In this document: positions 7,620 to 8,544 of the stretch, piece by piece
Numbering within the stretch: position 1 is the first letter of the stretch
Layout: every line of letters starts with the position of its first letter
Source: Flavisolibacter ginsengisoli DSM 18119
GTDB taxonomy: Bacteria > Bacteroidota > Bacteroidia > Chitinophagales > Chitinophagaceae
Assembly (NCBI RefSeq): GCF_900129295.1
Contig: NZ_FQUU01000001.1
Coordinates: 248,001 to 312,000 of the forward strand
Length of the DNA: 64,000 bases
Reading direction: 5' to 3'
Position numbers and translations under genes: made by a program
Notes under the pieces: model-generated
Database searches by the model: none
What the model was told of the DNA's origin: nothing
Seen by the model: the letters and a program-made list of their open reading frames with translations, nothing else

Positions 7620-7745
7620 GCCGGTTTTCAACTAAACCCTATATGATTTGATTTTTTCCGTAACACTTCCGAAGTTCACCTCCAGTATAACCAATATAGT
7701 AGCAATCCCAGGTTGGCGAATACAATATGTAGGTATAAAAGGCAT
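7620..7745 (-). pseudogene. Decayed third copy of the GIY-YIG gene
   Basis: The sequence aligns with the first ~40 codons of the two intact GIY-YIG genes, with the ATG complement at 7743-7745, exactly 345 bases from the next copy's start. One T is missing near codon 3, which shifts the frame, and small indels accumulate further on. The homology fades around 7620. The terminator in front of it is intact, so this is the oldest, degenerating unit of the array. Confidence 0.8.
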
Positions 7746-7772
7746 AAAAAAACCTCAGTGTTTACTGAGGTT
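7746..7772 (-). terminator. Duplicated tRNA-type terminator, distal copy
   Basis: Minus-strand stem AACCTCAG / CTGAGGTT with a 6-base loop, followed by a T-run that runs straight into the ATG of the decayed GIY-YIG copy. It is identical in layout to the terminator after the intact tRNA-Val, at a 345-base offset times two. Confidence 0.75.
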
Positions 7773-7779
7773 ATTATTG

Positions 7780-7850
7780 TGGGAGTTGATCCCGCATGTT
7801 GCGGGAAACCGCCGACCCTTCCGCCTTTAAGCGGAATGCCCTGAACCAGC
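7780..7850 (-). pseudogene. tRNA-Val 3' remnant, distal copy
   Basis: On the minus strand this resembles tRNA-Val from the D-loop (GCTGGTTCAG) to the 3' acceptor strand (AACTCCCA). The anticodon arm is a hairpin TTCCGC/GCGGAA, and the T-arm is replaced by a perfect CCCGCA-ACA-TGCGGG hairpin (7791-7805). The 5' acceptor strand is missing, so it cannot be a working tRNA. Its first ~24 bases are also the last codons of the GIY-YIG gene at 7827-8090. Confidence 0.8.
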
Positions 7851-8090
7851 AATAAGCTTTTGAATTTTTATTTTGCTCTTCCATGCTTTTATTTCCTTTT
7901 CCCGTTTGTAGGCCAACTCTTTGTTATCTAAGGTTTCCTTATAAACTATCTCCCAATCACCAGTTTTACCAGTAAATCCTTTATGGTTTGAATTATGTTT
8001 ACGCAATCGCTCCTGAAGTTCATCTCCAGTATGACCAATATAGTAACGACCCCTGGTTGGCGAATACAATATGTAGGTGTAAAAAGGCAT
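7827..8090 (-). CDS. Small GIY-YIG nuclease, copy A
   Basis: An 87-residue single-domain GIY-YIG protein of the UPF0213/URI type. The motif is present as [18 protein letters not shown] (GIY-like YIL at 5-7, YIG at 18-20), followed by the family segment [28 protein letters not shown] (Arg at about 29, Glu about 52) and a basic helix. It is nearly identical to copy B. The ATG directly follows the U-run of a tRNA-type terminator, with GAGG in the hairpin's 3' arm seven bases before the ATG. The last residues (AGSGHSA) are encoded by tRNA-derived sequence, and the stop lies in its anticodon loop. The biochemical role is unknown; small GIY-YIG proteins are nucleases by family. Confidence 0.88.
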
Positions 8091-8117
8091 AAAAAAACCT
8101 CAGTATTTACTGAGGTT
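8091..8117 (-). terminator. Duplicated tRNA-type terminator, middle copy
   Basis: Minus-strand stem AACCTCAG / CTGAGGTT with loop TAAATA, followed by seven T and then immediately the ATG of GIY-YIG copy A. It is a copy of the terminator at 8436-8462 at a distance of exactly 345 bases. Confidence 0.8.
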
Positions 8118-8124
8118 ATTATTG

Positions 8125-8195
8125 TGGGAGTTGATCCCGCATGTTGCGGCAAACCGCCGACCCTTCCGCCTTTAAGCGGAATGCCCTGAACCAGC
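8125..8195 (-). pseudogene. tRNA-Val 3' remnant, proximal copy
   Basis: A 71-base tRNA-like remnant with the same structure as the distal one. It has the D-loop GCTGGTTCAG, the altered anticodon hairpin TTCCGC/GCGGAA, and a T-arm replaced by a GCCGCA/TGCGGG hairpin with one mismatch. The acceptor 3' strand AACTCCCA is intact. It encodes the C-terminal end of GIY-YIG copy B. Confidence 0.8.
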
Positions 8196-8435
8196 AATAA
8201 GCTTTTGAATTTTTATTTTGCTCTTCCATGCTTTTATTTCCTTTTCCCGTTTGTAGGCCAACTCTTTGTTATCTAAGGTTTCCTTATAAACTATCTCCCA
8301 ATCACCGGTTTTACCAGTAAATCCTTTATGGTTTGAATTATGTTTACGCAATCGCTCGTGAAGTTCATCTCCAGTATGACCAATATAGTAACGATCTCTG
8401 GTTGGGGAATACAATATGTAGGTGCAAACAGGCAT
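8172..8435 (-). CDS. Small GIY-YIG nuclease, copy B
   Basis: An 87-residue GIY-YIG domain protein, nearly identical to copy A; the few visible changes include PVCTYIL for PFYTYIL and LHERL for LQERL. YIL (5-7), YIG (18-20) and the [16 protein letters not shown] segment are intact, so it should be active. It begins directly after the terminator of the intact tRNA-Val, with no separate promoter space. Expression therefore probably depends on terminator read-through from the tRNA promoter (inference). The C-terminal codons and stop lie inside a tRNA remnant. Confidence 0.88.
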
Positions 8436-8462
8436 AAAAAAACCTCAGTGTTTACTGAGGTT
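8436..8462 (-). terminator. Terminator of tRNA-Val
   Basis: Minus-strand stem AACCTCAG (8462-8455) and CTGAGGTT (8448-8441) with a TAAACA loop, followed by a U-run to 8436. It lies 8 bases after the tRNA 3' end. The following ATG of GIY-YIG copy B abuts the U-run, and the stem's 3' arm includes a GAGG that could act as its ribosome-binding site. Confidence 0.88.
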
Positions 8463-8469
8463 ATTATTG

Positions 8470-8544
8470 TGGGAGTTGACGGGTTCGAACCGCCGACCCT
8501 CTGCTTGTAAGGCAGATGCTCTGAACCAGCTGAGCTAAACTCCC
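8470..8544 (-). tRNA. tRNA-Val (anticodon UAC)
   Basis: A 75-nt gene with a complete cloverleaf on the minus strand. The acceptor is GGGAGTT/AACTCCC, the D-stem GCTC/GAGC, and the anticodon stem TCTGC/GCAGA with loop CTTACAA (anticodon TAC at positions 34-36). The T-arm is GGCGG-TTCGAAC-CCGTC with one G-U pair, and the discriminator is A. The 3' CCA is not encoded. Two truncated relatives lie upstream and two remnants downstream; this is the only copy that folds completely. Confidence 0.97.

What the first reader, a model, noticed from the sequence alone, without database searches (positions are those of the whole stretch)
7620..8544. A self-propagating unit joins tRNA-Val, its terminator and a GIY-YIG nuclease in exact 345-bp tandem copies
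Seen: behind the intact tRNA-Val there are three head-to-tail units of exactly 345 bp, each made of a tRNA terminator, a GIY-YIG ORF and the 3' part of a tRNA-Val-like sequence. Two are nearly identical and one is decaying. Known: GIY-YIG domains are DNA-nicking or -cutting nucleases, and tRNA genes are insertion targets. Inference: the unit may be a minimal selfish element that copies itself into, and rebuilds, a tRNA-gene 3' end.
Basis: partly seen in the sequence, partly recalled or inferred. Interest (0 to 1): 0.82.

Follow-up and report, generated by a model that had tools for sequence, protein, structure and literature searches.

The report
tRNA-gene-linked GIY-YIG nuclease repeats
A tiny gene for a DNA-cutting type of enzyme sits in tandem repeats beside a tRNA gene, and relatives of it sit beside many different tRNA genes in the Bacteroidota, which looks like a little-known family of tRNA-gene parasites.

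Summary
The array is real, with one correction: two full 345-bp units (336 of 345 bases identical) plus a truncated stub follow the only exact tRNA-Val(TAC) gene found in the genome. It is no local accident. Leaving aside a separate GIY-YIG clade (0 of 16 loci linked), 68 of 95 homologous loci have an intact same-strand tRNA directly beside the ORF, at 21 anticodons. Protein clades follow tRNA isotype (27 label changes, shuffled mean 61.5); dN/dS between species is 0-0.30 where finite (15 of 20 pairs). One orthologous tRNA-Val locus holds 0, 1 or 2 units. Best reading: a chromosomal homing-endonuclease-like element that lives in tRNA genes by partly duplicating its target, akin to phage SegB, which amplifies a tRNA-segB repeat (PMC13096335). 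Cutting and self-copying were not shown, and the tRNA pieces look locally duplicated, so 'rebuilds the 3' end' is not supported.

The parts
8647..8706 (-). 5' tRNA-Val piece A (tRNA positions 1-59), anticodon arm replaced by TTCCGC..GCGGAA hairpin
8566..8625 (-). 5' tRNA-Val piece B, identical to A over 60 nt, 81 bp away
8469..8544 (-). intact tRNA-Val(TAC), the only exact copy found in the genome
8437..8466 (-). terminator-like hairpin 1 (CCTCAGT..ACTGAGG, T run); the ORF ATG follows the T run directly
8172..8435 (-). GIY-YIG ORF, unit 1, 87 aa
8124..8195 (-). 3' tRNA-Val piece 1 (positions 15-76), palindromes in anticodon arm and T-loop; overlaps the ORF end
8092..8121 (-). terminator-like hairpin 2
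7827..8090 (-). GIY-YIG ORF, unit 2, 87 aa, 95% identical to unit 1
7779..7850 (-). 3' tRNA-Val piece 2, palindromes in anticodon arm and T-loop (TCCCGCAACATGCGGGA)
7747..7776 (-). terminator-like hairpin 3
7640..7746 (-). truncated, decayed start of a third GIY-YIG ORF (no tRNA piece behind it)

Best explanation
It is a chromosomal, homing-endonuclease-like element of the Bacteroidota that lives in tRNA genes. A minimal (about 80-90 aa) GIY-YIG nuclease gene is inserted beside an intact tRNA, together with a partial duplication of that tRNA (3' part plus terminator in the common form, 5' part in the other), and one arm of the duplicated piece is usually replaced by a palindrome. Inferred working: the nuclease cuts the intact tRNA gene of the isotype its clade is fitted to. 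Repair from a copy that bears the element installs it in an empty tRNA; unequal repair among the tRNA pieces lengthens or shortens the tandem array. The palindrome removes the cut site from the dead pieces, and the intact copy keeps the host alive. Shown: linkage, isotype-tracking clades, palindrome-bearing pieces, purifying selection, copy-number differences, empty orthologous sites. Inferred: cutting, its site, homing, and immunity through the palindrome.
For: Linkage: of the best 80 of 124 relatives in the collection of 84,980 species' genomes, 58 have an ARAGORN tRNA on the same strand ending within 250 nt upstream and 7 more lack contig (unfiltered); in the set 68 of 95, against 0 of 16 in a separate GIY-YIG clade. 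Target fidelity: isotype labels need 27 changes on the protein tree, shuffled mean 61.5, minimum 57 of 200. Function: dN/dS 0-0.30 in the 15 of 20 species pairs with finite values; the window's own two units give dN 0.021, dS 0.067. Fold: pLDDT 88.8; nearest solved folds UPF0213 BH0048, Slx1 and the I-TevI catalytic domain, Foldseek E 0.004 to 0.15. Target duplication: 3' pieces match the local tRNA; 5' pieces end within 5 nt of the T-loop start in 42 of 51. Palindrome with stem 6 or more in 78 of 89 3' pieces, against 17 of 89 tRNAs taken as intact, 7 of 89 shuffled and 43 of 314 flank segments. Site states 0, 1, 2 units at the AldH-tRNA-Val-TonB locus. Precedent: phage T6 SegB needs its nuclease activity to amplify a 718-bp tRNA-Tyr-segB repeat and cuts within tRNA genes (PMC13096335, passages and one section read).
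Against: No cleavage or transfer was seen. The protein lacks the separate DNA-binding part of I-TevI, so sequence-specific cutting is uncertain. Many close pairs share flanks and look vertically inherited; among named Val-type rows the tree clusters partly by host order (10 changes in 36 rows, shuffled mean 15.1). The intact tRNA in an occupied genome would still be cuttable. ORF-less arrays exist. A poorer last unit also fits a passive array whose outer end decays. 14 loci of 95 are unlinked although 350 nt or more of contig lie upstream.
Confidence: 0.55

Rival explanations
1. A host-serving, vertically inherited tRNA-locus gene: the nuclease keeps tRNA genes amplifiable, or guards tRNA genes against integrating elements, and is held by selection on the host.
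For: Purifying selection between species that share the locus, orthologous flanks within a family, attachment to the only exact tRNA-Val(TAC) of the genome; SegB shows that such amplification can be useful (PMC13096335).
Against: Patchy presence (66 of 98 genomes with any GIY-YIG hit, the unlinked clade included), empty sites, many different tRNAs, decayed copies, paralogues in one genome at different tRNAs.
Confidence: 0.15
2. A REP/RAYT-like system: the nuclease acts on the TCCCG..CGGGA palindromes and spreads them; tRNA copies are mainly landing places.
For: The ORF is often flanked by palindrome-bearing pieces; palindrome excess per genome correlates with GIY-YIG copy number (Spearman 0.35, p 0.0004; control pattern 0.07, p 0.48); all 21 genomes of 98 with the tRNA-palindrome motif have a GIY-YIG hit (hypergeometric 7e-5).
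Against: The correlation is weak, not corrected for kinship and partly built in, since elements carry palindromes; genomes without a hit also show palindrome excess (for example G003); it does not explain isotype-tracking clades.
Confidence: 0.15
3. A passive tandem duplication beside a tRNA with a bystander GIY-YIG gene.
For: Two near-identical units and an outer decayed one.
Against: The same layout at 21 anticodons, clades by isotype, dN/dS well below 1, recurrent palindromes in the tRNA pieces.
Confidence: 0.05
4. Tandem tRNA decay comes first: tRNA pieces with palindromes multiply by ordinary recombination and the nuclease gene is a later rider.
For: ORF-less arrays at tRNA-Lys, -Pro and others.
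Against: All 12 genomes with such solo pieces also hold GIY-YIG hits elsewhere (p 0.006), which fits non-autonomous derivatives as well.
Confidence: 0.1

Closest known systems
Phage T4/T6 SegB, free-standing GIY-YIG homing endonuclease (PMC13096335: abstract, passages and section 10 read; T4 review PMC2988022: passages read)
   Same: GIY-YIG nuclease gene next to tRNA genes; tandem repeats of tRNA plus nuclease gene; [quoted passage not shown] its motif RAWTSGAAC is, by my own comparison, the reverse complement of a tRNA T-loop (GTTCGAATC fits).
   Different: Phage-borne and a larger protein (size recalled); the paper reports no favoured isotype in phages; no palindrome-bearing tRNA pieces are mentioned in the passages read. 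Here: chromosomal, 80-90 aa, isotype-tracking, short fixed units.
UPF0213 stand-alone GIY-YIG proteins of solved structure (1zg2, 1ywl)
   Same: Best sequence matches in the PDB (E 1.3e-8 and 1.4e-4); 1zg2 is also the top fold match; similar size.
   Different: No tRNA setting is known to me for them (not tested). In the tree made here a separate GIY-YIG clade of 16 loci is not tRNA-linked; whether that clade is UPF0213 was not tested.
REP sequences with RAYT transposases (recalled)
   Same: A nuclease-type gene flanked by palindromes that also occur elsewhere in the genome.
   Different: GIY-YIG, not an HUH Y1 transposase; sits in tRNA genes.
tRNA-targeting integrative elements with tyrosine integrases (recalled)
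   Same: A tRNA gene as site and a duplicated tRNA 3' part.
   Different: A 345-bp unit too short for an integrase gene; the duplicated part matches the local tRNA; a 5'-part form exists.

Membership tests
GIY-YIG nuclease (PF01541) | Match to the catalytic-domain profile above the gathering score | tested here: met
   52.3 and 54.7 bits, cut-off 22.6
GIY-YIG nuclease (PF01541) | Conserved motif tyrosines, Arg and Glu | tested here: met
   Y5, Y16, E63 invariant and R27 at 90% or more in 34 sequences; their catalytic role is recalled
GIY-YIG nuclease (PF01541) | Catalytic Asn as in I-TevI | tested here: inconclusive
   Asn residues are conserved (N32, N34) but their equivalence to the I-TevI Asn was not established
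Free-standing homing endonuclease gene | Gene lies beside its presumed target | tested here: met
   68 of 95 loci tRNA-linked
Free-standing homing endonuclease gene | Occupied and empty versions of one site | tested here: met
   AldH-tRNA-Val-TonB locus: empty L172 and L175, stub L168, one unit L161, L164, L170, two L156, L163, L166, L167, L171; species, not strains, are compared, and gain or loss is not resolved
Free-standing homing endonuclease gene | Cuts the element-less allele and is inherited in excess | not testable with these tools
   Needs enzyme assay and crosses
Free-standing homing endonuclease gene | Separate DNA-binding part besides the catalytic domain | tested here: not met
   86 residues, GIY-YIG fold plus a short low-confidence tail
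Phage SegB | Phage-borne | tested here: not met
   No match in 50,697 phage records; 3 relatives in the 2.9 million viral contigs, two of them at contig ends; phrog_314 'homing endonuclease' matches 3 of 34 members
REP/RAYT | HUH Y1 transposase | tested here: not met
   Only PF01541 found for the ORF
Intron-encoded GIY-YIG endonuclease | Lies in a group I intron | tested here: not met
   No intron family in 7500-8850 at E up to 1
Integrase-type tRNA island | Integrase gene in the element | tested here: not met
   The repeat unit is 345 bp with an 87-aa GIY-YIG ORF, too short for an integrase gene

The most novel reading that the evidence does not exclude
A phylum-wide class of chromosomal selfish elements that use tRNA genes as homes: isotype-specialised GIY-YIG lineages duplicate part of their target tRNA, fix a palindrome at the cut site of the dead part as an immunity mark, leave the intact tRNA to keep the host alive, and also move ORF-less derivatives in trans.
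Probability: 0.35. Interest if true: 0.9.

Novelty: new variant of a known kind. Interest (0 to 1): 0.75.

Why it matters
If the reading holds, tRNA genes of a large bacterial phylum carry a selfish element that explains odd tandem tRNA fragments and contig breaks at such repeats. It would give a chromosomal, testable counterpart to phage SegB, and a natural set of very small GIY-YIG nucleases sorted by tRNA isotype. It also bears on how an element can occupy what may be a single-copy essential gene without killing its host.

Tried and rejected
Phage and plasmid origin: no phage match, one 38.8% plasmid match. Known defence gene: only a weak PADLOC profile, E 0.013. Known RNA family for the dead pieces: only the intact tRNA passes its gathering score; two weaker sRNA-family matches are far below theirs. 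Palindrome dispersal as the main function: correlation too weak. The first breakpoint script found only 8 copies because its seed was misplaced; it was replaced, whose seed cannot see pieces cut earlier than 5 nt before the T-loop. ARAGORN calls some palindrome-bearing pieces tRNAs (for example L041, L080, L095, L116); one search recounts without those that its filter catches, but L047 and L113 still look like dead pieces by eye, and L135's dead copy served as the 'intact' one. Apparent horizontal spread: not shown; many near relatives share flanks.

Rows dropped or not seen: one search's table was cut by the tool at E about 9e-6; every listed match with E up to 2.4e-6 is held in a locus, the weaker listed ones were not fetched, and two weaker ones of the window's own genome (L008, L009) were. 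One search leaves out L002 and L007 (overlaps). One search drops 12 loci that hold the same place as another; two arrays that seem split between contigs (L136/L137, L140/L141) still count twice. One search uses 177 of the 184 loci. examines 107 of 116 class I loci (tRNA length 72-79 with a readable T-loop). One search reads 89 3' pieces and 52 upstream matches of 116; one search uses 89 and 44. One search uses 44 of 52 Val loci. One search looks at 38 loci, of which 11 come from genomes picked because they hold the element, and 27 from the 30 loci kept of 72 matches. The counts were typed by hand.

Full report
1. What is in the window. On the minus strand the order is: two identical 5' pieces of tRNA-Val (positions 1-59), the intact tRNA-Val(TAC), a terminator-like hairpin, a GIY-YIG ORF, a 3' piece of tRNA-Val (15-76), a hairpin, a second ORF, a second 3' piece, a hairpin and a truncated third ORF. 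The two complete units are 345 bp and differ at 9 positions. The third is a stub, so 'three exact 345-bp units' is not quite right. The ATG follows the T run of the hairpin directly, and the ORF ends inside the tRNA piece, which supplies GSGHSA and the stop codon. No second exact copy of the tRNA-Val(TAC) gene was found in the 4.68-Mb genome; the next matches are 83% identical.

2. The protein. It matches PF01541. An AlphaFold model reaches mean pLDDT 88.8, lowest (60) in the tRNA-encoded tail and 77 around residues 31-40. The PDB sequences nearest to it are two UPF0213 proteins (E 1.3e-8 and 1.4e-4); by fold they are UPF0213 BH0048, Slx1 and the I-TevI catalytic domain, none with Foldseek E under 0.001. 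With 86 residues there is little beyond the catalytic domain.

3. It recurs beside tRNA genes. A protein search of 98 genomes of the same genus, family and order found hits in 66 (E up to 0.001, all GIY-YIG clades), several as arrays with other spacings. Of the best 80 of 124 relatives found in genome contigs, 58 have an ARAGORN tRNA on the same strand ending within 250 nt upstream, and 7 of the rest have no room on the contig. In the set of 111 distinct loci, after removing palindrome-bearing pieces that ARAGORN calls tRNAs, 56 have the intact tRNA directly upstream (class I) and 12 directly downstream (class II), at 21 anticodons of 12 amino acids. Sixteen of the 111 form a separate GIY-YIG clade and none of these is linked. 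So it is 68 of 95; of the 27 unlinked, 13 have under 350 nt of contig upstream and 14 have more. Fisher's test on the counts before the clean-up (69 of 94 against 0 of 17, split by bit score) gives p 5.6e-9. In the genome contigs set after removal of duplicates the clean count is 59 of 73, 51 of them Val(TAC); two of the 59 (L047, L113) look like dead pieces by eye.

4. Clades follow isotype. On a tree of 177 proteins (80 columns, many unresolved forks) the isotype label needs 27 changes among 128 rows, against a shuffled mean of 61.5 and minimum of 57 in 200 (30 against 64.6 with the uncleaned labels). In the window's own genome the Met-linked copy (L003) and the Pro-linked copy (L005) lie with same-isotype copies from other genomes; the Val-linked copy (L001) lies in an unresolved, mainly Val-linked part. 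Switches occur: Arg(TCT)-linked L040 and L044 lie beside Val-linked L010. Near-copies and shared descent add to such clustering.

5. The dead tRNA pieces are not random decay. Of 89 readable 3' pieces 78 hold a perfect palindrome with a stem of 6 or more, against 17 of 89 tRNAs taken as intact (a few of which are themselves dead copies), 7 of 89 shuffled pieces and 43 of 314 flank segments; for upstream pieces it is 36 of 44. The best stem begins TCCCGA in 42 and TCCCGC, TTCCGA or TTCCGC in 17 more of the 89. By eye, most replace the anticodon arm; in other lineages (for example Pro-GGG, Leu-TAA, some Arg and Asp) the palindrome sits in the D arm. The rest of a 3' piece stays close to the local tRNA: for 44 of 52 Val loci with a readable end, the last 30 nt are 94.9% identical to the neighbouring tRNA and 75.3% to Val tRNAs of other loci; 29 of 44 are exact. 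So the piece is a local duplication, or kept like its neighbour by conversion. Upstream 5' pieces with a palindrome occur in 35 of 107 class I loci (51 copies); 42 of 51 end within 5 nt of the T-loop start, though the method cannot see earlier ends and copies in one array are not independent.

6. It changes in number. In the family of Algoriphagus an aldehyde dehydrogenase gene and a TonB receptor gene flank tRNA-Val. Of 38 loci held through the dehydrogenase, 13 show tRNA-Val within 1.5 kb of its 3' end: two GIY-YIG hits in 6 (one of the two partial in L180), one in 3, none in 4; one more locus (L174) shows a hit without a tRNA in view. Four of the nine occupied ones come from genomes chosen because they hold the element. 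Of the four without a hit, L172 and L175 are clean single tRNAs, L168 keeps a decayed ORF start, and in L173 the contig ends. Direction of change (gain or loss) is not resolved, and species rather than strains are compared. In 29 arrays the last unit is clearly poorer than the first in 7, the first poorer in none, and 22 are similar (in L071 a middle unit is poor) (two-sided sign test 0.016). One genome (G010) shows 3 full units at one contig end and 5 plus a truncated one at another, which reads like one long array cut by an assembly gap.

7. It is kept by selection. dN/dS lies between 0 and 0.30 in the 15 of 20 species pairs with finite values; 5 were saturated. The window's own two units give dN 0.021 and dS 0.067 (ratio 0.32, few changes). 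The two units of Algoriphagus L061 differ at dS 0.81 but dN 0.08, so both are old and both constrained (all).

8. ORF-less forms. The pattern 'D arm, palindrome, GGGTC' occurs in 21 of 98 genomes and its reversed control in none. Of the 30 loci fetched (L255-L284, about 1.5 kb each side, some at contig ends and two pairs overlapping), 17 show no GIY-YIG hit, for example tRNA-Lys L281 and tRNA-Pro L260 and L280, which hold one to four palindrome-bearing pieces beside an intact tRNA. All 21 genomes have a GIY-YIG hit somewhere (66 of 98 overall, p 7e-5; for the 12 genomes with solo pieces p 0.006); for the 21 this is partly by definition, since many of the pieces belong to elements. The solo pieces look like non-autonomous derivatives; they may instead be deletion products.

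9. How it most likely works. The nearest experimental case is phage T6 SegB: its nuclease activity is required for tandem amplification of a 718-bp tRNA-Tyr-segB repeat, it cuts inside tRNA genes, amplification needs phage recombination proteins, and segB genes lie near tRNAs in many phages (PMC13096335; abstract, passages and section 10 read). By analogy, cutting of the intact tRNA followed by recombination between tRNA pieces would explain the arrays, and repair of an empty tRNA from an occupied one would spread the element. I infer that the palindrome marks and removes the cut site in the dead pieces. A weak point is that the protein has no extra DNA-binding part, so how a clade would recognise one isotype is unknown.

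10. Known or new. The listings of ten searches of the open-access library showed no paper that, by title or abstract start, describes GIY-YIG genes in bacterial chromosomal tRNA loci or palindrome-bearing tRNA copies; only two papers were opened (PMC13096335, PMC2988022), both in part, and subscription journals and preprints are not held. I file it as a new variant of the free-standing GIY-YIG homing-endonuclease kind, by resemblance: the defining act (cutting and homing) is untested, and one usual feature, a DNA-binding part, is not met.

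Noticed in passing
L087 against L090 (AldH and TonB flanks): The whole tRNA-Val plus element cassette is inverted relative to its flanking genes between related species; the same is suggested within Algoriphagus (L061, L103 against L071, L102, L107).
   Followed up: partly
L281, L260, L280, L273, L266: Palindrome-bearing tRNA pieces (Lys, Pro, Val), several in tandem with terminators, without the nuclease ORF nearby.
   Followed up: partly
whole genomes, pattern TCCCGN{2,10}CGGGA: Palindromes are over-represented in many genomes of the order (own genome 54 against 16 for the reversed control), though not in all; excess correlates weakly with GIY-YIG copy number.
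   Followed up: partly
L134 and L135 (G015): Two tRNA-Gly/tRNA-Leu clusters with the same 420-bp GIY-YIG units (98.5% identical over about 1.16 kb) lie at two chromosomal sites with different flanks, which may be a recent copy event.
   Followed up: partly
spacers after 5' pieces, for example L057, L078, L149, L224, L265: The short spacer after a 5' piece, before the intact tRNA or a class II ORF, in these cases holds GTTCTTT, which recalls an rRNA-type boxA antitermination motif (recalled, not counted); it could bear on reading through the tRNA terminator.
   Followed up: no
G010 C2/C43, G012 C23/C53 and other hits: Contigs often end inside or next to these arrays, so assemblies probably under-count units.
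   Followed up: no
window 6730-7482, minus strand: A 250-aa ORF next to the array has no Pfam match at E 0.001.
   Followed up: no
L282 (G054): A palindrome-bearing tRNA-Ile-like 5' piece stands before a tRNA-Ile/tRNA-Ala pair, with no GIY-YIG hit nearby.
   Followed up: no
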